From Hydractinia symbiolongicarpus (Eukaryota; Cnidaria; Hydrozoa; Anthoathecata; Hydractiniidae), in contig NC_079886.1 in assembly GCF_029227915.1 (NCBI RefSeq), forward strand, positions 16,096,501 to 16,160,500: a DNA stretch of 64,000 nt, written 5' to 3'. Both the position numbers and the translations under genes were made by a program. Below, one piece after another: positions 2,256 to 46,682 of this stretch. How positions within the stretch are numbered: the first letter of the stretch is position 1; each line of letters opens with the position of its first letter. Below the pieces are notes generated by a model, which was given only the letters and a program-made list of their open reading frames with translations, was not told the DNA's origin and searched no databases.

Positions 2256-3229
2256 TTTAAGAATGGTATTTAAAGAAATATTAATAATAATACAATGACA
2301 AAAAATATTCTGTAAATATGTATTTTAGACTTGGACGAATTAAATAACCCTTATGTGCAAAAAAAAGATAAAAAATTCTCATCAATATTATTTATATTTA
2401 CGTTTCGTAAATGTTATTGTATCGTGTTAAAAATGTTCTTCTTACATTCCTAGTTTGTTGTTTTGTTTACAAACTTAATGACTTTGTTATTGTTATCAAC
2501 CTAAGTCACATTTTATGATGATGATGTCATAATTTGGTTAAAGTTTGGGAATATAAAACTGTGTAATGAAACTAGAAACAATTAGAAACAATCCCGTAGG
2601 AAAAATCTACAAGAATTCTCTCCCCGCGACTTGCAGCTACCATATTTGGTTCCGAAAGCGAACATTCCTGTCCGGCTCACTCTATTTTTTCCTTCTAAAA
2701 GCAGTGTGCTACTTAAATCTCTGAGCGTTTACTTTTTTTGAGAAAGATGTTTCAGTTTCAGAAAGTGCGTGTTCATTATAAATTCCAGGGAAAACGCAAA
2801 CAATACACTATGAATACACTTCAATGTAAGATTTTGACTCACTTTCAATTTCATAAACCGTTTTTTTTTTGCAAATCTGCATTGTGACAAAAGGCAGAGA
2901 TAGGGAAATGTTACTTCTGGCGCAGGCGCACGCGCACGCTACAATCAAGCACAACAAATCCCTGATAATCCAATACCATACGGTACCATGCGGTGTTGAG
3001 TAGAACAAAGTCCCTATCATACAGCAAATGAGTTAAAATTCTAGCGCAGAGGTAATTCCCTAATGATATTAATCATCAACGCATGCGCAATAAAGATGCG
3101 TTAATTTTGAGTAAGATAAAATCCTCTGACAAACAAAAAAATTCTATATAATAAAGAGAATGGATACAGTCATTAGGGAGAAGACATTTATTTTTAAATA
3201 TGTAACATCAAAATTCAAAACACAAGACA
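2256..3229. other. Gene-free stretch, 3' UTR then intergenic
   Basis: The start of this stretch is the AT-rich 3' UTR of the VOPP1-like gene. The rest is unassigned. The reverse-strand open frame at 2808-3020 is low in complexity and shows no domain. Nothing else could be supported. Confidence 0.5.
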
Positions 3230-3233
3230 TGTA

Positions 3234-3756
3234 ATAAGGAGTTTGAAAATAATTCCTACATATTCAGGTACATACCGGATCGGTTTAAGACACGATACAT
3301 GTGCAACTAGGCTTTCGAAAATAATTCCCCCATATTCAGGTATATACCGGATCGGTTCAGGACACGATACATGTGCAATAAGGCTATTGAGGGGGGTTCA
3401 TGGCTAATTGAGTATGTACCGGACCGGCTCAAGACGCGGGACATGTGTAATAAGGTTGTTGAAAGAGATCTCCGCATGCTAAGGCATGTCCCGACCGGTT
3501 CAGGACGCAGGACATGTGCAATAAGGCTGTCGAATGGAGGGCTTATATGCTGGAGTATGTGCCGGATCAGTTCAAGACACAAAACATGTGTAATAAGGTT
3601 GTTGCAAGGAATCCCCGCGCGCTTAGACATGTCCCGGACTGGTTTATCACCAATGACATATGGGATATAGTTGAGAATGAGGGGCTCGAACTACTCGAGG
3701 CCTGCTATTACAGGAAGATGAGAAAGGCCTGGATTAAGGGGATCTTCTTCCATTAG
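3234..3756 (+). pseudogene. 24-residue-repeat ORF of virus-like element, frameshifted
   Basis: Six units of 72 bp (one is 71 bp) run from about 3234 to 3665. In the coding frame each unit reads roughly MCNKxVE...(L)xxVPDxFKT, with a conserved Met-Cys-Asn-Lys and a Val-Pro-Asp-x-Phe/Leu-Lys-Thr. The first unit has an in-frame stop, and the 71-bp unit shifts the frame near 3490, so two overlapping ORFs (3371-3670 and 3514-3756) each hold part of the array. The second ends in a non-repeat segment with WDIVENEGLELLE. Repeats of this general kind (helix-pair repeats, like DUF4116) are known in large DNA viruses and in virus-derived loci of cnidarians. Their function is unknown. Confidence 0.6.
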
Positions 3757-3908
3757 CCTGGCATCCGGATAGGGTCTTCGATTGGTGCTTTTCGGAGGAT
3801 GAAAAGTTAGGCCTCAAAAAGTATTGGGGGTTGACCTGAAAACGTTATCTTACAGAAAAAGCTGTGGGATGATGTGAACTCTCATTGTAATCCCCGGACC
3901 CTGTTGGA

Positions 3909-4341
3909 ATGATATATAAAATGGTACTCTGTTACTGGTGCTCTATGGAACTGTACGATATCGTCAGGTGTCCCATGAGATACAATCCGCCGCAGGTTAG
4001 TACAAAACATAAGACGGAATCTGGATTTTTTTATGTGATGGAAAAGATGGCTGCTCATATGGGTGAATATGACGACGACGGGTATGTGTACGAGGGCTAC
4101 TTTTGTAGTAATGCGTGCTGTCTGGCTTATGTGGAAGAGCGAAAGGTGTATGACAGCGCGTACGAAATGTCGGTGCGGTTAGGATAATGAACGGAGGATT
4201 CAGGACCTAGAGGATCGTCTTGATGACTTGGAAATAAATGGATGTAAGGACTGCGAACGTATACTGAATGAATATAACCGATGTAGATGCGGGAGAAGGT
4301 TTGAAGTGGGCTGTAAAATCCTATGTTGGTACTGTTACTAA
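3909..4341 (+). pseudogene. Viral late transcription factor 2-like zinc-finger ORF, broken at 3' end
   Basis: An intact 92-aa reading frame (3909-4187) has Cys8-x2-Cys11, then a PMRYNPPQ-type loop, and a second knuckle Cys66-x3-Cys70-Cys71 followed by LAYVEE. This spacing and the FCS-like second knuckle match the small zinc-finger proteins (VLTF2-like) of nucleocytoplasmic large DNA viruses and relatives. After its stop a second open segment in the +1 frame (4183-4341) holds a short coiled-coil stretch and several CxxC pairs. This suggests that the original product was longer and has lost frame near 4180. Known family members act in late viral gene transcription; activity of this copy is unlikely. 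Confidence 0.5.
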
Positions 4342-4425
4342 GAATACATAATCTACAACGGGGGTGGCTGTGTATGTACAATGACATGGAATTCTCTTAA
4401 GTCGTTTGAATTACAATAAAAAAAG

Positions 4426-4775
4426 ATGCTTCAATTTGAGAATGAGCTTGTTAATCCAAAACTATTCTACAATTTTGCCGCTACGTTTACAGACATCAAC
4501 GATATTAATGTGGAATACCTAACGGTATCAGAAGCCAGGTCTGCCAATGGAGGTAAGGACAAACGATACGTGGTGGGGTATCATACACAGGACCTTGTGG
4601 TGGCCTTGAGGGTGAAAACACCGAAAATCTGGTCCCCACATGGGGTGAGCAAGTATAATGCAAATGCGTCACCGGTAATGAGCTGGATTTTGATGAGTAT
4701 CCGGATTGGATTGCGAAATATAGTCAAATCTGGTCCAAAATCGAAGGGTTAATTTTTCAAGTTAATTCAAGTTAA
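4426..4775 (+). pseudogene. Virus-like element ORF, unknown, C-terminal frameshift
   Basis: The 108-aa frame 4426-4752 carries an LVVALRVKTPKIWSPHGVS motif in its middle. Beyond about 4670 the same strand stays open in a second frame that is rich in acidic and aromatic residues and runs to about 4770, while the original frame turns into an unrelated tail. This indicates a single frameshift near 4675. I do not recognise a named domain. Spacing from the zinc-finger ORF is about 85 bp, as in densely packed viral genes. Confidence 0.4.
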
Positions 4776-4916
4776 TTTCATCTTTCCCTTCCTCTCTGCC
4801 TTTGGCAACCAACTGGGCCCTCTCCTGTTCATTGATAGCATTCACAATACGAATAAATCTCTGCCGCATTCGCTCCTTCAACAGCATATACCTTTCTTTA
4901 TAAGGCTAATTAGACT

Positions 4917-5377
4917 ATACTAGTGGTCACTGATCACACTATTTTCCATTACCTTGCTGATCAGGTCAACGATACTGTTCAATTTGGCCTCGGCAAGCAG
5001 TCTTATGCCCTCATGCTTTTTAGACTTAACGCGCAACCGTTTTGAGGCGTTCCGAAGACCGGCTTGCCCTATTCCGGCGGCAATCGCGAGTCCCCCATGG
5101 CACAAGCCAAGGCTACCCCCATACCCGAGACCATAGCTCCTATCCCAAGCCCCGACGTGATCACACTTACGCCAAGCAGACCACGGTCGCACATCCTGAC
5201 CCACGTGTTGTGCATTTTAAATTTTTTCGCCAATCTATTCCGCTCCTTTATTTCATCCCTTAGGTAATGTTCGATTTGCTTGATCTTCTTGAGCCTATAA
5301 ACCTGTCCCTCATCCTGATTGGAGCCTTGCGCGGTTGCACTCAGCAAACTCGGATAAAGTTTGCTGATATCGCTCAT
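4917..5377 (-). pseudogene. Virus-like element membrane-associated protein, frameshifted
   Basis: The frame begins at 5377 and runs to 5069, and a second frame (to 4920) continues it with a frameshift around 5130-5090. The N-terminal third is hydrophilic with an RLKKIKQIEHYLRDEIKER helix. A glycine-rich hydrophobic segment in the middle (GLGIGAMVSGMGVALA in one frame) looks like one or two membrane passes. A basic segment (KRLRVKSKKHE) and an amphipathic C-terminal helix follow. Intact relatives of this architecture occur repeatedly in cnidarian genomes beside other virus-like ORFs; that is recalled, not checked here. Function is unknown, and it could be a minor virion membrane protein. Confidence 0.45.
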
Positions 5378-5626
5378 CTTTATTCTATGAGAATGCGCAG
5401 TGTGATGTGAAAAAAAGTGACGTTCTTCTCGTGATGGTAGACGTCTGTCAGCATAAACTGTGGAGCCTTTTAATGGGCATTAAACAGGACTGTCAAAGGT
5501 CCAGGTTAACATATCTCCCCAGGCGTTTAACTTTTTGGTAGGAAGCAAGGCCAGAACCTTAGATTTTTTGCCATCCAAAAAGCAGTTGTCTTCATTAAAT
5601 TGTAGGTAAATAAGTATCAACCTATG

Positions 5627-5917
5627 CTAAACGTCGGTTTTATATATGACATCATAGTCGCCCTTCGTATAAAATTTTTTTGCGGGATCGTAGGGCAGGC
5701 CTAAAAGCTCCTGCAACGGTCTGTTAATAACCACCGTATAGCCATCGCTGACACGGAGTCTGCAGAGTCCATTTTTCAGGACAAAAAGCTTGATCTTATC
5801 TTGCGCTTGGCTGTCGACAATAGCCGCAATGTCCTCGATCCTATACAGGCCATTCATAATCTCAATCCTTGTAACCCTCATCAACAGTGTAGCACGTAAC
5901 AAACACATAAACAGCAT
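5627..5917 (-). CDS. Virus-like element small ORF with LLGLPYD motif
   Basis: This 96-aa frame has several in-frame Met codons near its start. The methionine of MNGLYRIEDI (about residue 21) is a likely alternative start because the preceding segment is hydrophobic and poorly conserved in style. The body is a short beta-rich pattern (LCRLRVSDGYTVVINRPLQELLGLPYD) followed by a KKFYTKGDYDV segment. It has no frameshift within this span. I do not recognise a catalytic domain. It resembles small structural-type proteins found next to the 24-residue-repeat ORF in other virus-like loci. It lies in the same orientation as the membrane-associated ORF. Confidence 0.4.
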   Translation of the reverse strand: MLFMCLLRATLLMRVTRIEIMNGLYRIEDIAAIVDSQAQDKIKLFVLKNGLCRLRVSDGYTVVINRPLQELLGLPYDPAKKFYTKGDYDVIYKTDV

Positions 5918-5930
5918 CTCGTATCAACTT

Positions 5931-7163
5931 CCTGAGATTTGGTTACCAGCCCTACAGAAGAAGTAGTTACCTACATCTAGGTCCGAAATTAACTGTAATT
6001 ATCAGCTCGTTTCTGATTGGTTAATTTTTATGAATTTCGATCCTCTGCAATTATATAAATACTTTGCCCGATGATGGGAAAAGGATCTCCCGAAGCGTCG
6101 CCTACTAAACTATCATGTTCAAGAAATGATAAACTTTCCACAGTAATCTAAACAAATAGTTAACCATCGACCTCGTGCCCAGGGCTTGTTAGGTGATTTG
6201 TATTGTACATTGTTGAAAAAACGTTAGCCATGCATTATTTTTTTGTTCATTTTGTACTCCATAGTTTTTCTTTTTTCACTTTTTTGAAAAATAGAAGATG
6301 GTCCTGTAAACGAGGTTGCTTCTTCAATTTTGAACAGACAAAATGTCAACTAACAGTGTGCGGAAATGTTAGAAAGTTTGGCAAAAGTATTTTGCAGATA
6401 AGCAAAATTTAGCGTGGGAAGTTGTCTGAAGAAATCGGCCTCAAACCAATTATCGAGTGATTGTGCTAGCTATTAACTGACAGTGGCACGCCATTATATT
6501 AAAATTTGCACCTGCTAGGTGAGCTTCCACGGAGGCCAAACTCAGGTGTGAAAAATACTGGTCAACAACAAAATAAAACAGGAGGCGCGAGAATGAAGAC
6601 AAATGAGGTAAGAACTTGTTATTATGAAAACGCGGCCAAGTATCGCCAGCTGAGATTCCTGTTTCAAATTCGTGCTAATATTGTATCAATAATGTTAGAA
6701 ATGCGTCGAAGTTCCATACACATAGAGATATAAAAAAATAGTTATTCTTTTGTTTTGTTGATTTTTACGAATCAGCAGAAAATTTTCGCACTGTTACGTG
6801 TAACATATATTTATACAGCAGTTTCTTCAACGTGAAAAAAAAAACTACACAACCTAACTCCTAAATCCGTTTAATATAGTCGTGTTTAGCAAACTAAAGA
6901 AAGGATTAGTGAACAAGCTGCACTTTATTTAACACTCGCGTGTTCATTATTGGCACAATATTGAAAATGACGTCAATAAACAAAGCGAATGAATGACGCA
7001 TGTTTTAGGTAAGTGCAAAGTAAATATCATTGATTTGTGTAGTTTATTAAACGTGAGTATATCACGAAGTTAACTTAGTTTTGTATACATCAAGGGAGTG
7101 AAAACACATAGCACACTAATTGGAAGACTTCACAGGAAAGTAGCATCGCCTTTTTAATATTAT
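5931..7163. other. Gene-free stretch between virus-like relic and next gene
   Basis: AT-rich sequence without a supported exon. A TGACGTCA octamer occurs at about 6967. The ORFs at 6203-6412 and 6506-6733 are low-complexity and have no domain. An isolated donor-like site (GAG|GTAAGA, near 6608) follows a short open frame, but no phase-compatible acceptor connects it to the next gene. Confidence 0.4.
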
Positions 7164-29900: not shown

Positions 29901-32900
29901 TTTTTGTTAAATAACTTGTGTTAAATGTTTGCTGGAAGAAATTAAGTAAGCTTCAATAAACTATTTAAGAAATAAACAGAAGAGTTCGCCTTTTGCTCAA
30001 TCTTCACTAGCGTAGTATTGATTAAGGAAAACGCTCAACGGTGGCAACGAGAATGCAGCCTTGCCTTTTGTTGAAGTTGTCTCCAGGTTCTGAAAGTCCG
30101 GCCTTGTAACTTCGTCATGCGCCTTTGTGCTGTTTTGTATAAGTTGCGTATCAAAAGTGTCATTCCTATCATCCAAAAGCTGCGTATAGCTAAATTTCTC
30201 CTGTTGTACTTTATTGTTAGAATATACATTGCTAAATTGATACGGTTCCATGTTGCTGTCTAGCGAATGATATGTGGTGGCTCCTTCATACTCATTCCCT
30301 GTCAAGCTGCTATTTGCTGCATTACCGCTTTGTTTTACCATTGTTTCAGAGTTATCCACGGTGCGAGGAACGTCAGAAGCAATTATATCATTATTGCTGC
30401 TTTGCTTATTAGAATCCACTGTATTTTGGACACCTGTAACAAATTTAGGGGTAAGGCCTGCAGACTGGGATGTCTGATTCGATGAAACATTAATCTCCTG
30501 TCTTACGCGAGGTTTCGTAATGTTTGGCGACTTTACAAGCAGAAATTTAGAAGGTGCAGTTGGTTGTTTTAATTTGCTAGTTTTGTCAGCAAGAACATTT
30601 GTTGTGGTGATGTAAATTTTGTCAGAATTGCTGTTAATGAGCATAATCGTTTTCCTGTTCGTGTTTATGTTACATAACATCTTGTTTGTCTTTTTTAATC
30701 CAGATAAGCAGGATGCTTTGTGTTGCTCTTTCGCTGCGTCCTGCTGTTCGTATGGTGTGTCTTGTATGCTTGTGTTTCTACTTTCGCGAACATTTGAAGA
30801 ATTTTCCACTAGAAACGTTTGTTTTTTCTCTTGTTGTTTCAGTTGGTTGTCGTTGGGATCTTTAAAGCTATGTCCAACGACAAGAGGGGACGAATTCTTC
30901 TTTAGTAAGGCATGATCGGCAAAAAATGTCAATGAACTTGTCGACAATCTTGTCTGTAACAGCAATTTCTCGTTATTGTCGTAGTTGTTGTCCGTGGTTC
31001 GCGGTGAGTATGAGGTTCTTAAACTTTTTCTTGACAATACATCGATTTCATCGTTAATACGTCTCTTACGGTTTAATGTCTGTTTATTCTCTATTTGACC
31101 TAATGGCATGCGGTTGCCTTGTTGATTTTTCATTCCGTTCACTACAGGAATCGAAATGCTTTTATTTTTCTCGCCACCTGCTTGATTGTGTTCAAGAGGA
31201 TAATACGCCCCAATTTGATCTGTTCTTGTTGGCCACACATAGGGCGCTAGTTTGGTTAAGTCACCCATATTGTACTTTGACAACCTCGAAATTATGTTCA
31301 TAAGATTTGCTTTCGCATGACAATCTATGCATCCCGCCGACATCAGATGACGTGTGAACTCTACGAGGCATGCGTTATATCCAGCGACGTATGATTTTTC
31401 ATCATCTGAAAACAATGACAAGCACAAGTTACGATCAGAATTTTTCCAAATATATATACTTTTATTATTTGATATACTTTTCCAGCAGTAACAATTCAAT
31501 TGTTAATTCTAACTGATCAAACGTTGTTAAAAAGGTGATGTACGGAACGCATTTCAATTTATGTTTGTGTATTGAGACAACTTTGAAAATGAAGTGATGT
31601 CCTGGAATACCTGAAATATCTGAAAATTACCCTAGCGATTGATTTTTCACTTTAAGGGAATTAATTTAAAAGTTTTTATATAAGAGACGTTTAAAGTTAA
31701 AATTCACATATGTACAGTCGACGCTTGATATCTCGAATGCCCGTTACTTCGAACTTTCGCTTTATCGAACTGTTTTTCCGGTCCCTTCAGCTCATTTTAT
31801 CACGTTATGTCGAACTTTCGCTTATTTTGAACAAAAACATTTGATTTTATAAAAAGTTCGATTGATACAAAAAAGGGACTTCCGAATATATAGAATCTCT
31901 CATTGTTGAAGATAATATAGCTTTGAGAAATTAGAGTAGTATTTTTTAAGCTTATTTGGAGAGAAGTAAGTTTAGTAACGAATACACCCTAATCCATATA
32001 TTCTGTCCTGTAGCTCGTTTTTGGCTAAACAATCTAATCAAGAGTTTTTTCACACAGGTACAGGTATATCGCTATGTTAAACTTTAAAGACCTTTAAAGC
32101 TGGATATCTCGACTATCGACTGTACTATAGTCGTTTTAGGTAAATCTGAAGAAAAAATCAGTGTCATCGTTTCCAACAATTTTCGCGAAATTAACAAAAA
32201 CTCGCGAAATTCGCGAAATTTAAACCCCTAAGGTAGAAGGCCCCTTTTGGTGATTTCCGCGTTCCGCAAGGAGTTGTTCAATAAATGTTGGAAAATTATT
32301 CTCATCTCCTTCTACTGCCGTCACTTAATAGTGCCCTCCTCCCACGTTAAAGCACGGCGAGAAGCTTCGCCCCTGCTTGGTGCAATATCGCCATAAAGGG
32401 TTAGTACAAGAATTTAATGCAACAAAATTTTCCCGCTTGTACCTTTTGCTTTTCATGTTCTTACCAACCCCAATCTCCGCCACCTAGAATCCTGGTTTGG
32501 GGCCATAAGACGATACGGGACAAAAAAGCAAACTTGTTTGCAGCTGATATCAGCCTTCCGCTTGAGGATTCGCATACGTTGCGTTTAGTGCACTCGTGTT
32601 ATGTGGGACACTCCGGGGACTGCAAAAATTCGTCCCACTTAACGAATGTCTCACTTAACCGAATCTCCCTCTGATCCTTTTTCAAAAAAGGCTTAAAATG
32701 TCCCACTTCTTATAACATCTTCTATTTTTCGGTAACTGATTTTATAATTATTTTTCGTTTTTGTCAACTTCTAACACCCCTTCACGGCTAGTGACTTTCA
32801 GACAGCATTAAAAGCTTATTTTCAACTCGTTTAGCAGTGTTTTTTTTTCTTCGTTTGATTTTTAACATTCGAATTTCATTCATTTAATTTCATTTGTTTT

Positions 32901-35900: not shown

Positions 35901-37242
35901 AATTCAATAACGAAATTTAAAAATGGCCCGGATTTTTTGTCGTTTGAAGTGAAAACTTCTTTGAGAGAATTGAAGGAAGCGAATATTTTGGCAGATGAGG
36001 CATTTAATTATGTCTGAGCACCAAAAATTATTGAACTCAATGAGGTGTTTTGCGAGTTTTTGTGCCACACCATTTGAATTGTGGGACGAATGAAGCTAGC
36101 TCATTTGGAGCAAGATCAAGGCCGCTTTGATCTCTCAAAATTTCTGTAATTTTTGAGCCTCTCTAGAAAATTTTTAAACAATCTGCGTGCCACAATTTAA
36201 GAGTTAATTTTAAAGCGCTTTTGCAACAGAAAGTAGGTGAACATCTCAGCGCTGTTGTATGTTTTACTCCGTGTAGTTTTTGTTATATTTGAGGTTACAA
36301 CGAAGATTATTTGTGATGCGTCCTTAGAAGCAGGGTGGTGTGGATTAATACCAGTTGGAGAAACAGCAACCAACGTGACAACTTTCGGATTAAAATACAA
36401 TTTAGGTACGTATTACAGCCCATGAAAGCACACTCCAGAAGTCCCCAGTCTCTTTCGCTAAAGACGTATCACTTTCAGGTAACAAACTATTTTCGAAACT
36501 TATTTTAAAGATGAGTGGTCAGAAAGTGTTTTATAAGCTTTCAAAAATTAATTTCAAATGAACAACGAAGAACTCTACTCGCTTCAAAAATTAATTTTAA
36601 ATTAACAACGAAGAACTCTACTCGCTTCAAAAACTAATTTCAAATGAACAACGGAGAACTCTACTCGCTTACAAAATAAATTTCAAATGAACAACGAAGA
36701 ACTCCACTCACTTACAAAATTAATTTCAAATGAACAACGAAGAACTCTACTCGCTTACAAAATTAATTTCAAATGAACAACGAAGAACTCTACTCGCTTA
36801 AAAAATTTAATTTCAAATGAACAACGAAGAATTCTACTCGCTTAGATCTACAACAATCATACTAGGAAGGAATTTCTTATTTTTTTATTTGCAAAACTTA
36901 TTTTTGCGGATTTGAACCAAATCTGCAAAATATGTTACGCAAAATTTTTTTCCTCAAAATTTTGTACCCGTAAGGTAAAACGCAGGTATCAAATTTATTA
37001 AAAAATGCAAAATGCTCTGGGAAAAAGGCAACCACGCATGTAATTCAAAGCTGCAACCTTTCCTGCTAGCACTAAAGTTTAGGTTAATTAAACTCTGTAA
37101 TTATTTTTCAGACAATCAAGCCCTCCAGTTTGGATCATTAATAAGCACATCAAATTCTCTCGACAAGGACGTTGATCGTGTTACAGTTACTACGTCACAC
37201 CACTTATTGTGGAGTCTGGGCTATGACGCCAGTAAAGTGTAA
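26936..37242 (+). CDS. TPK1: Thiamin pyrophosphokinase 1
   Basis: Exons 27069-27143, 27340-27403, 27754-27826, 29531-29626, 35404-35550, 36294-36405 and 37112-37242 are firm. A first exon at 26936-26996 (ATG, donor T|GTAAGA) is tentative, but fits phase and brings the protein to 252 aa against about 243 in human. Hallmarks are [35 protein letters not shown] with the catalytic acidic cluster, [36 protein letters not shown] and [10 protein letters not shown] near the C terminus. The enzyme is cytosolic and transfers a pyrophosphoryl group from ATP to thiamine, making the cofactor thiamine diphosphate. The fourth intron contains an entire bHLH gene in antisense, and a 43-bp tandem repeat lies in the last intron. 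Confidence 0.93.
29997..33710 (-). CDS. bHLH-Orange (HES/HEY-like) transcription factor lacking WRPW
   Basis: Four exons (33678-33710, 33513-33599, 33132-33210, 29997-31405) close in phase to 535 aa. Residues 12-66 form the bHLH: basic region [18 protein letters not shown], helix 1, loop, and helix 2 [18 protein letters not shown]. Residues about 71-112 match an Orange domain ([21 protein letters not shown]). The long serine/asparagine/glutamine-rich remainder has no clear domain, and the protein ends ...NQYYASED, without the WRPW or YRPW that recruits Groucho. At the HES proline / HEY glycine position of the basic region this protein has leucine. Orange-domain proteins are nuclear repressors downstream of Notch or in patterning. 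The whole gene lies antisense in an intron of TPK1, so both could influence each other's transcription. Subfamily (HES, HEY, HELT) is uncertain. Confidence 0.85.
31715..32122. repeat. Tigger/pogo-like MITE
   Basis: Ends are CAGTCGACGCTTGATATCTC (left) and, inverted, CAGTCGATAGTCGAGATATC (right), flanked by TA on both sides. The ends resemble Tigger/pogo TIRs, and the TA duplication is that of Tc1/mariner elements. There is no transposase in its 408 bp. It lies in the TPK1 intron just upstream of the last bHLH exon. Confidence 0.6.
34811..35107. repeat. MITE with long imperfect TIR in TPK1 intron
   Basis: TCTTGGTAGC...AAAGTGCTAAAGTGGAGAGG on the left is mirrored by CCTCTCCATTTTAGCAC...GCTACCAAGA on the right, an imperfect inverted repeat of roughly 60 bp. 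The ORFs across it (34583-34771, 34870-35118) are chance frames. Confidence 0.65.
36540..36842 (+). repeat. 43-bp tandem repeat, about seven copies
   Basis: A 43-bp unit (ACAACGAAGAACTCTACTCG, then CTTACAAAATTAATTTCAAATGA) is repeated about seven times with few substitutions in the last TPK1 intron. The high copy identity suggests recent amplification. Confidence 0.9.
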
Positions 37243-44682: not shown

Positions 44683-46022
44683 TTAAATAGAAGCAATAAA
44701 TAAATCTCTCTAAAATAATAAAATAATAATAATAAATATTTAAAGTGGCTAGCCCACAAAATCACAAAAACCTATAGTTAGTGGATTGTTTCCACTAGGG
44801 GCCACTAATAAAATTGAAACAAAAAAATTTCTTTAAAAATTAAATATAAACGAATAAATTTCGTATGAACCAAATACGACATTGTCACTGAAAATTTGAC
44901 ATTTTTTTAAGAAATGCTACCCATATGTTTAAATTCTTCTTATGCTCACACCACTTCATGTCATAATAAAGACCTATATAATATACAAATTCAATAGGAA
45001 AATTTTTTTTTTTCACTTTCTAAACCTTTTGTGATTACATGGACTAACTGCTATTTATTTGTTTCAGGTTGATTAACAATGCAACCAAAAATAATGATAA
45101 CTCTAAAAAACAAATAATCACTCAAACCGCAAACTTTTTGTAAGGCAGTAACAGAAGCCAATAGCATATATTTCATTTCATTTCAAACAATCATCCACAG
45201 AATGCAAATGCACATTTGCCACATTGCATCTTTCCTTACCAGTTTTAGGACATTTTTATTCCTGACGACCTTTTTTTTACTCACCTACTTACTTATAAAG
45301 AGACAACTAAAATTCTATGCAATTAAAATCTATTCTTTCTATAATTACCAGTTTCAATGAATTAGTAATATAAAATACTTGACTAAGTTCTTTCTTAAAG
45401 TATTTATTTATAATATGACAACCAAATAAATTTTCTAGGGAAAAAAATTACATATATACTAAATGTAATAAAACAGTCTAAAATTTGTTTAAATTATTTT
45501 TAAATGCCACTTTAAAATTTTGCACTGATTTTACTTTTTTTGAGACTGGGTAATTAACTAGAGAAGACTTTTGAGAAATATCTAAGAAAAAACAAAGCTC
45601 TACATATTACTACCGTGAATTGCTATCTGTAAACTATTTCTGGAATCATTTGTCTTAACTCTTTACAAAACATACTTTGGCATAGAACAGGACAACCTTG
45701 ACAATAAAAACATGGCAAAAATCATTTGAAACAGTAGCACAAATATGAACCCACAAAGACAAAATACAAATTATATACTTGTTGTTAATATATATTTGTT
45801 TCCATCAAGGGTCTTTCTACATAGATATAGAAAAGATATCCGGATTTTCTTTGCCATAGAAAAGGTCAACCTGGACACTCTGTTGTAAAACTTATATAAT
45901 ACTAAAGGGACATGCTCACATACTTTTCTGTGACGAGCTGCACACTATTACAAGTAGATGATATGCAAAAAAGAACCTTTATATATTTATTTTTTAAAAT
46001 TTTCTTATGCTTGCAGGTTATT

Positions 46023-46682
46023 ATGCATTTGCAAAGGCAATTTAAAGCATTAAAATCATTTGGTATAATAAATAGAAACAATAGTAACTGGGCACAAAAT
46101 TTAATGAATTACTTTCAAAGAGGAGGTCAAAAAACTATTAGGCAAGTTGGTGACCCAATACTTCGAGCACATGCTAAACCAGTTGAGTTGGCTTATTTAA
46201 TTGCTCCAGAGTTTAAAGAAATGGTAGATGAACTTGTTTCAACACTACGAAAAAAAAATGCTGCTGGAATTGCTGCTCCACAAATTGGCGTCTCCTTGCA
46301 GGTGATAGCTGCTGAAGTAACTGGGCACGATTTGAAATTAGCTATACAAAAGTATGGAAGTAAAGGAGTCACGAAAATGCAAATGACCCTCTTTCCATTG
46401 ACTGTTATGATTAATCCAAAAATTAAAGTTATCGATCCTACTACTGTAGCTTTTAAAGAAGGTTGTTTAAGCGTGGAAAATTTTACTGCAGTTGTCCCAA
46501 GGTCGCAGGAAATTGCTGTTGAGGCGTTGAATGTAGAAGGAGAAACAATTAATTTCACTGCGGTTGGATGGACTGCTCGTATAATTCAACATGAAGTTGA
46601 TCATTTGAATGGTAACCTATTTATTGATTGCATGTCATATAAGACTTTAACAAATGAAAAGTGGCGTTCATACAAATCATGA
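46023..46682 (+). CDS. Peptide deformylase, mitochondrial type
   Basis: A single coding exon of 219 aa. All three deformylase motifs are present: motif 1 GIAAPQIG at 82-89, motif 2 EGCLS at 146-150 with the metal-binding Cys148, and motif 3 QHEVDH at 189-194 with His190, Glu191 and His194. The enzyme removes the formyl group from Met at the N terminus of organelle-made proteins. The first ~35 residues are basic and free of acidic residues, as expected of a mitochondrial targeting peptide. The frame is open further upstream to 45912, but I chose the Met at 46023 because a splice-acceptor-like TTGCAG ends 5 nt before it, making the upstream part intron or outron. Confidence 0.93.
   Translation: MHLQRQFKALKSFGIINRNNSNWAQNLMNYFQRGGQKTIRQVGDPILRAHAKPVELAYLIAPEFKEMVDELVSTLRKKNAAGIAAPQIGVSLQVIAAEVTGHDLKLAIQKYGSKGVTKMQMTLFPLTVMINPKIKVIDPTTVAFKEGCLSVENFTAVVPRSQEIAVEALNVEGETINFTAVGWTARIIQHEVDHLNGNLFIDCMSYKTLTNEKWRSYKS

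What the first reader, a model, noticed from the sequence alone, without database searches (positions are those of the whole stretch)
3230..5930. Endogenous virus-like relic with a five-ORF core
A GC-richer, intronless, compact gene block with inward-facing ORFs stands out in an AT-rich intron-containing genome. It combines a 24-residue repeat ORF, a zinc-finger ORF of late-transcription-factor type and a hydrophobic frameshifted ORF. This combination does not match a typical retroelement and suggests a Maverick-, adintovirus- or large-virus-derived locus.
Basis: partly seen in the sequence, partly recalled or inferred. Interest (0 to 1): 0.62.

Follow-up and report, generated by a model that had tools for sequence, protein, structure and literature searches.

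The report
Broken end of a Maverick virus-transposon
This stretch is the decayed left end, about 3,000 bases, of a Maverick (Polinton), a virus-like mobile element with very many copies in this genome; it is real and viral in origin but ordinary.

Summary
In detail: a virus-derived relic with five recognisable genes lies here. Its limits are about 2896-5879, not 3230-5930. It is the truncated left end of a Maverick/Polinton: a terminal inverted repeat (2896-3168), a DUF4116-like repeat gene, a cysteine-rich ORF and ORF3 (+), then ORF4 and ORF5 (-). Four of the five genes are broken. ORF3, ORF4 and ORF5 each give 150 scored matches in the same genome, out of 917-1,125 first-look candidates. In longer copies the block continues into capsid, integrase, packaging ATPase and viral DNA polymerase genes; three copies checked at both ends have inverted ends 14-22 kb apart. 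None of those genes was found in the window. The right edge abuts an unrelated 268-bp repeat. The copy differs by 18-30% in DNA from its relatives, mostly with a coding-constraint pattern. Nothing found speaks for host use; RNA was not available. Mavericks are already known as sizeable parts of coral genomes (PMC12005156). Mildly interesting: a giant-virus-type capsid match and DUF4116 end genes. New member of a known kind; low interest.

The parts
2896..5879 (+). whole relic: left end of a Maverick/Polinton, cut off inside ORF5
   Evidence: homology limits; other element genes not found in the window
2896..3168 (+). left terminal inverted repeat, beginning AGAGATAG
   Evidence: 21 of 48 other rows start at window 2895-2897; same or nearly the same start in C9, C3, C2, C8 and C13 loci; in the C9 copy the corresponding stretches form a 230-bp inverted pair, 95.2% alike
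3212..3836 (+). DUF4116-like repeat gene: about six units of 71-72 bases and a tail, in more than one frame, with a stop inside
   Evidence: DUF4116 E=2.1e-4 and 0.0045, under the cut-off; 72/143-base repeats; open relatives pass the Pfam cut-off (L016, L012)
3891..4187 (+). cysteine-rich ORF, the only piece in one continuous open frame over its whole match; zf-FCS match too weak to name it
   Evidence: zf-FCS E=0.017, under the cut-off; (72% to residues 3-97 of a 129-residue relative)
4420..4760 (+). ORF3, first part only, in two frames; unassigned
   Evidence: residues 12-124 of a 216-residue open frame in L011
4774..5377 (-). ORF4, in three frames with one stop; has a glycine-rich hydrophobic stretch, possibly membrane-active
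   Evidence: residues 1-202 of a 215-residue open frame in L011; best 21-residue hydropathy mean 1.74
5383..5878 (-). ORF5, first 86 residues lost against L013, two frames, two stops; better conserved than ORF4 between subfamilies; unassigned
   Evidence: residues 87-254 of a 254-residue open frame in L013
5880..6147 (.). neighbour, not part of the element: interspersed repeat of about 268 bp that begins exactly at the break
   Evidence: 42 rows (40 of 1,050 candidates scored), 36 of 42 start at base 5880, none of the 41 others passes base 6154

Best explanation
The relic is the left end of a Maverick/Polinton, a virus-like element that copies its DNA with its own polymerase, inserts with a retroviral-type integrase and encodes capsid and packaging genes. 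One copy inserted here; all of it to the right of mid-ORF5 was later lost at a junction with an unrelated 268-bp repeat, and the remaining genes decayed. Shown: homology, gene order, terminal repeat, truncation, lesions, and hallmark genes in relatives. Inferred: how the right part was lost, that the ancestor made particles, and that the copy does nothing now. The roles of ORF3, ORF4, ORF5 and the DUF4116 gene are not known; I think ORF5 (well conserved) is a virion part and ORF4 a membrane-active virion part, while the DUF4116, cysteine-rich and ORF3 genes next to the terminal repeat are accessory genes.
For: Window pieces of ORF3, ORF4 and ORF5 give 150 scored rows each, the window's own included. 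Same-locus links to hallmark genes: L027 holds polymerase (DNA_pol_B_2, 48.9 bits, cut-off 25.8, with endonuclease VII), an ATPase relative, ORF5 (81%), ORF4 (61%), weak ORF3 (31%) and DUF4116 in 10 kb; L026 holds ORF4 (40%), ORF5 (80%), a 423-residue capsid frame (Capsid_N 27.0 bits, cut-off 24) and integrase pieces; L015 holds cysteine-rich, ORF3, ORF4 (74%), ORF5 (83%), capsid pieces and integrase (82%); L011, with ORF4 at 83%, holds ATPase pieces, integrase (5.9e-7), ORF6, ORF5, ORF4, ORF3 and DUF4116. Integrase in L018, beside L014, at 6.5e-13 and A32-type ATPase in L019, beside L013, at 1e-9. Inverted ends: C9 copy 230 bp, 95.2% alike, 14.2 kb from end to end; C3 copy 221 bp at 90.5% plus 61 bp at 87%, 21.8 kb; C6 copy 285 bp, 98%, 14.6 kb. 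C3 copy has a 6-bp target repeat CACAAA. Polymerase homology lies just inside the C9 and C3 right ends (L021, L023) and inside two further ends, L024 and L025. Truncation and lesions.
Against: No hallmark gene is in the window itself, so membership rests on relatives. The cysteine protease was not found. No capsid relative was found in L011, L012, L016 or L027, though each is only 10 kb long, and ORF6 was not found in L026. The target repeat is a clean 6 bp in one of three copies checked, with the end taken one base further in; the other two show 5 bp, one of them offset by two bases. Integrase matches in L011 and L013 fall just under the Pfam cut-off. The capsid match is to the giant-virus model Capsid_N, not to a Polinton-specific one, and in L014 it is under the cut-off. 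ORF3-ORF5 have no Pfam match of their own.
Confidence: 0.94

Rival explanations
1. A fragment of an integrated giant virus (Nucleocytoviricota).
For: Capsid_N and A32-type ATPase matches; an ankyrin-repeat frame beside one copy (L014).
Against: Three copies checked are 14-22 kb between inverted ends; relatives have a retroviral-type integrase and a DNA_pol_B_2 polymerase; many dispersed copies.
Confidence: 0.03
2. A host gene family with DUF4116 repeats that happens to be multicopy.
For: DUF4116 domains are not virus-specific (recalled); the cysteine-rich ORF is still open.
Against: The block recurs beside capsid, integrase, ATPase and polymerase genes; the pieces here are broken.
Confidence: 0.02
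3. A relic that the host has taken over, for example as a source of small RNAs or a small cysteine-rich protein.
For: The 3909-4187 frame is open; nothing tested speaks directly to RNA.
Against: Four of five genes are broken; stops occur inside some of the matches elsewhere as well, so a broken copy is not special.
Confidence: 0.05

Closest known systems
Maverick/Polinton elements (vertebrate set of PMC8097293; passages and section 7 read)
   Same: Retroviral-type integrase, viral B-family polymerase, packaging ATPase, capsid gene, terminal inverted repeats, size range, accessory genes at the ends, an end motif of AG repeats (the C9 right end reads AGAGAGATAG, the window AGAGATAG), and many degraded copies.
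   Different: Capsid recognised by a giant-virus model; extra convergent ORFs (ORF4-ORF7) among the capsid and integrase genes; protease not found; DUF4116, Fic and Rho_N genes in various copies.
Cnidarian Maverick-Polintons (PMC10120064, passages; Maverick repeats of coral genomes, PMC12005156, passages)
   Same: PMC10120064 says cnidarian capsid genes were the only metazoan ones outside the main Maverick-Polinton cluster; PMC12005156 lists Maverick as 1.41-6.74% of three coral genomes.
   Different: The host here is unnamed, so sameness of lineage was not tested; no sequence of theirs was compared.
'Meldvirus' chimaeras of PMC11071296 (passages)
   Same: The paper describes genomes uniting adintovirus-like polymerase and integrase with virion proteins like those of larger DNA viruses, and a class of membrane-active capsid core proteins (Macc), some with hydrophobic domains, that ORF4 recalls.
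   Different: No sequence comparison could be made; 'Macc' for ORF4 is a resemblance by hydropathy only.

Membership tests
Maverick/Polinton | retroviral-type (rve) integrase | tested here: met
   in relatives: L018:3-488 at 6.5e-13, 49.2 bits over cut-off 32.6; L013 and L011 just under the cut-off; not found in the window
Maverick/Polinton | protein-primed-type family B DNA polymerase | tested here: met
   L027:1176-2642 DNA_pol_B_2 6.2e-13; 16 matches in the genome (91 of 576 candidates scored); YMDTD motif in L018 and L019 frames (motif meaning recalled), although those two frames have no Pfam polymerase match of their own; priming itself not testable; not found in the window
Maverick/Polinton | packaging ATPase of the A32/FtsK kind | tested here: met
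   L019:9170-9766 Pox_A32 1e-9; relatives in L011, L018, L027; not found in the window
[quoted passage not shown]
   Capsid_N 27.0 bits over cut-off 24 in L026:2662-3930; by profile only, fold not tested, and no PDB sequence relative of note; not found in the window
Maverick/Polinton | minor (penton) capsid protein | tested here: inconclusive
   no frame scanned matched one; the window ORF5 piece folded poorly, mean pLDDT 54.9
Maverick/Polinton | Ulp1/adenain-type cysteine protease | tested here: inconclusive
   candidate L013:752-1162 gave only weak matches, none to such a protease family in Pfam
[quoted passage not shown]
   inverted ends in C9, C3 and C6 copies; 6-bp repeat in one of three, 5-bp in two; the window keeps one end only
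Adintovirus (as defined in PMC11071296) | OTU-like domain on the polymerase, hexon recognisable by BLASTp, chromodomain on the integrase | not tested
   no adintovirus sequence was compared; Pfam showed none of these domains in the frames scanned
Integrated giant virus | very large genome with many nucleocytoplasmic virus genes | tested here: not met
   inverted ends 14-22 kb apart in the three copies checked

The most novel reading that the evidence does not exclude
The family is a distinct animal (probably cnidarian) Maverick lineage that joins integrase and viral polymerase to a giant-virus-type capsid, and carries at one end a changing accessory cassette (DUF4116 repeats, cysteine-rich ORF, ORF3) that may act against the host or rival viruses; I found no description of such an end cassette.
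Probability: 0.3. Interest if true: 0.4.

Novelty: new member of a known kind. Interest (0 to 1): 0.15.

Why it matters
It correctly labels a decayed piece of a very abundant viral mobile element. The family as a whole bears on how animal Mavericks and giant viruses came to share capsid types, and on what the unnamed end genes do; the single relic in the window adds little by itself.

Tried and rejected
Giant-virus insertion: rejected because of the inverted ends and element size. Host gene family: rejected by linkage to hallmark genes. zf-FCS as the name of the 3909 ORF: E=0.017, under the cut-off, and the open relative L016:6051-6437 has no match, so left unnamed. IMG/VR relatives: five scans with ORF5, ORF6, capsid, ATPase and the window ORF4 piece gave none confirmed (they use short exact peptide patterns, so a miss is weak). 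PDB sequence searches with ORF6, two polymerase frames, ORF5 and two capsid frames gave no match or only E of 0.17-0.95. Host naming by the GFP family failed in the 14 controls too and says nothing. PHROGs gave no useful match for the window pieces, best E 0.016. Rfam (gathering scores) and tRNA scans of the window found nothing. Dating in years was not attempted for want of a rate.

Full report
What is there. The stretch holds five gene families in a fixed order: a DUF4116-like repeat gene, a cysteine-rich ORF and ORF3 on the + strand, then ORF4 and ORF5 on the - strand. Pfam gives DUF4116 at 2.1e-4 and 0.0045 for two overlapping pieces, under its cut-off, and a weak zf-FCS match that I do not rely on; ORF3-ORF5 match no Pfam family at E<=1. 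The repeat gene is built of units of about 72 bases. The relic is richer in G+C (0.434) than the window (0.345).

A very large family. In the window's own genome (481 Mb, 76 contigs) the pieces of ORF4, ORF5 and ORF3 give 150 matching rows each, the window's own among them, from 150 scored of 1,125, 1,055 and 917 first-look candidates; the cysteine-rich ORF gives 151 rows (191 candidates, 150 scored) and the DUF4116 piece 182 rows (1,733 candidates, 150 scored), several rows sometimes falling in one place. The order is kept: among listed matches on C1, C3, C5 and C12, 14 of 55 ORF4 places have an ORF3 match within 3 kb, all 14 convergent (0.12 expected from uniform placing), and 8 of 55 have ORF5 within 3 kb, all 8 just upstream on the same strand; of 47 ORF5 places 9 have ORF3 within 3 kb, 8 of them on the expected side. 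I used four contigs of the lists only, and the lists are cut at 150.

What the longer copies carry. In the stretches fetched, copies continue past ORF5, though not each of them in full, into ORF6 (opposite strand), ORF7, a capsid gene, ORF10, an integrase, an ATPase and, at the far end, a polymerase. Matches: rve integrase 6.5e-13 in L018 and Pox_A32 ATPase 1e-9 in L019, with a Fic-domain gene; Capsid_N 27.0 bits over its cut-off of 24 in L026, where the 423-residue frame is uninterrupted, and 18.6 bits, under the cut-off, in L014; DNA_pol_B_2 48.9 bits plus endonuclease VII in L027. A genome search finds Capsid_N over the cut-off at two places, one of them about 1.7 kb from a listed ORF5 match, and DNA_pol_B_2 at 16 places, one of them about 4.2 kb from a listed ORF5 match. 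Linkage inside one locus is direct in L027 (polymerase, ATPase, ORF5, ORF4), L026 (capsid, integrase, ORF5, ORF4), L015 (cysteine-rich ORF, ORF3, ORF4, ORF5, capsid pieces, integrase) and L011 (ATPase, integrase, ORF6, ORF5, ORF4, ORF3, DUF4116; no capsid match). These are hallmark genes of Mavericks/Polintons as listed in PMC8097293 (section 7 and passages read) and PMC11071308 (passages read). The cysteine protease of that list was not found.

None of this is left in the window. Eighteen frames of other loci (ORF6 to polymerase, Fic, Rho_N, and further capsid, integrase and polymerase frames included) find nothing in the whole 64 kb at E 0.01; the five window pieces find only themselves and, for DUF4116, its own repeats.

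Ends. A DNA search with 2300-3211 shows that homology begins at window 2896: 21 of 48 rows other than the window begin at 2895-2897, the earliest of all at 2887 (40 of 290 candidates scored). The same start, AGAGATAG or close to it, is seen in C9, C3, C2, C8 and C13 loci. In the C9 copy the two ends are inverted repeats of 230 bp, 95.2% alike, 14.2 kb from end to end; in the C3 copy 221 bp at 90.5% and 61 bp at 87%, split by an insert on the left, 21.8 kb; in the C6 copy 285 bp and 98% alike, 14.6 kb. The C3 copy has a 6-bp target repeat, CACAAA, with its end taken one base further in; C6 and C9 show 5-bp repeats, that of C9 offset by two bases on one side. PMC8097293 reports 12.7-24.6 kb, inverted repeats of 46-1,447 bp, 6-bp target repeats and an (AG)3 end motif among intact vertebrate Mavericks. 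So 2896-3168 is the left inverted repeat of the relic; no target repeat can be checked because its other end is gone.

How it is broken. Against open relatives: the DUF4116 gene passes between frames and has a stop; the cysteine-rich ORF is one open frame; ORF3 covers residues 12-124 of 216 in two frames; ORF4 covers 1-202 of 215 in three frames with one stop; ORF5 covers 87-254 of 254 in two frames with two stops. On the right, of 19 loci compared 15 (L002-L016; 14 places, since L008 lies in L011) match this part and 11 of the 15 end at exactly 5879; the others end at 5875, 5875, 5867 and 5522. At 5880 a different repeat of about 268 bp begins: of 42 rows 36 start at that base, and none of the 41 other than the window passes 6154. 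Either that repeat inserted and the rest was lost, or a break joined the two; the data do not decide.

Age. The best-scoring piece of each of these 15 loci is 70-82% identical in DNA to the window. For ORF5 and ORF4, third codon positions hold 0.60 of the differences between window and others (589 of 989 over 12 loci, and 614 of 1,016 over 12 loci), and 0.61 (4,310 of 7,069, 65 pairs) and 0.64 (2,289 of 3,583, 56 pairs) among the others. Equal decay would give 0.33. Most of the divergence thus looks as if it arose under coding constraint, before or apart from decay here. The control is soft: 13 of the 15 loci were used (L007, and L011 as the double of L008, were left out), ORF4 of L014 gave no alignment, pairs with 250 or fewer aligned bases were dropped, the other copies are partly decayed, L003 has both genes in one frame and so counts twice, and pairs are not independent. 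The family was active more recently elsewhere: the C6 ends are 98% alike, and L013 and L014 agree at 88-97% over ORF5, ORF6, capsid frames and ORF9, less (70-93%) over ORF7, ORF10 and Rho_N. I give no age in years.

What the host made of it. Nothing was found that speaks for use: four of five genes are broken, no tRNA or Rfam family lies in the window, and RNA data are not available here, so use is not excluded.

Roles. ORF5 keeps 89% identity to the more distant L013/L014 subfamily, where ORF4 has fallen to 41-42%, so I take ORF5 as a core, probably virion, gene; a fold of its window piece was too poor to use (mean pLDDT 54.9). ORF4 has a glycine-rich hydrophobic stretch (hydropathy mean 1.74 over 21 residues), which recalls the membrane-active capsid core class of PMC11071296 (passages read); this is a guess. 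DUF4116, the cysteine-rich ORF and ORF3 lie beside the inverted repeat; there L013 and L014 carry a Rho_N gene and no DUF4116 match, while L027 has both. I call them accessory.

Known or new. Mavericks make up 1.41-6.74% of three coral genomes (PMC12005156, passages read) and are among the elements enriched in certain regions of the Acropora tenuis genome (PMC12314368, passages read). PMC10120064 (passages read) states that cnidarian capsid genes were the only metazoan ones outside the main Maverick-Polinton cluster, which fits the giant-virus-type capsid match here. A search for DUF4116 in the library found two papers, neither about Mavericks by title and start of abstract, so a DUF4116 cassette in Mavericks was not found in print by that search. 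The relic is a new member of a known kind.

Noticed in passing
window 5880-6147: An interspersed repeat of about 268 bp, 40 places scored out of 1,050 first-look candidates, that begins exactly where the relic stops; its class is not known.
   Followed up: partly
L013:1171-2420 (-), L014:8085-9368 (+), L026:2662-3930 (+): The capsid region lies in one uninterrupted frame in L026 but in two or more adjacent frames in both L013 and L014, which may mean that those two come from one already altered lineage.
   Followed up: partly
L027:1176-2642 and L019:3412-6558: The viral polymerase frame also carries an endonuclease VII-like domain; whether this fusion is known was not looked up.
   Followed up: no
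L019:7384-8214: A Fic/DOC-domain gene (4.4e-14) lies inside the C6 copy near the polymerase frame.
   Followed up: no
L014:3225-3785: An ankyrin-repeat frame, with a stretch of 30 residues similar to window 3738-3827, next to a Maverick copy.
   Followed up: no
window 45912-46682: A 256-residue open frame with a clear peptide deformylase domain (6e-43), all in one frame.
   Followed up: no
window 29997-31499 (-): A 500-residue open frame without any Pfam match at E<=0.01.
   Followed up: no
window 36543-36844: A tandem array of seven 43-base units, 92% matches.
   Followed up: no
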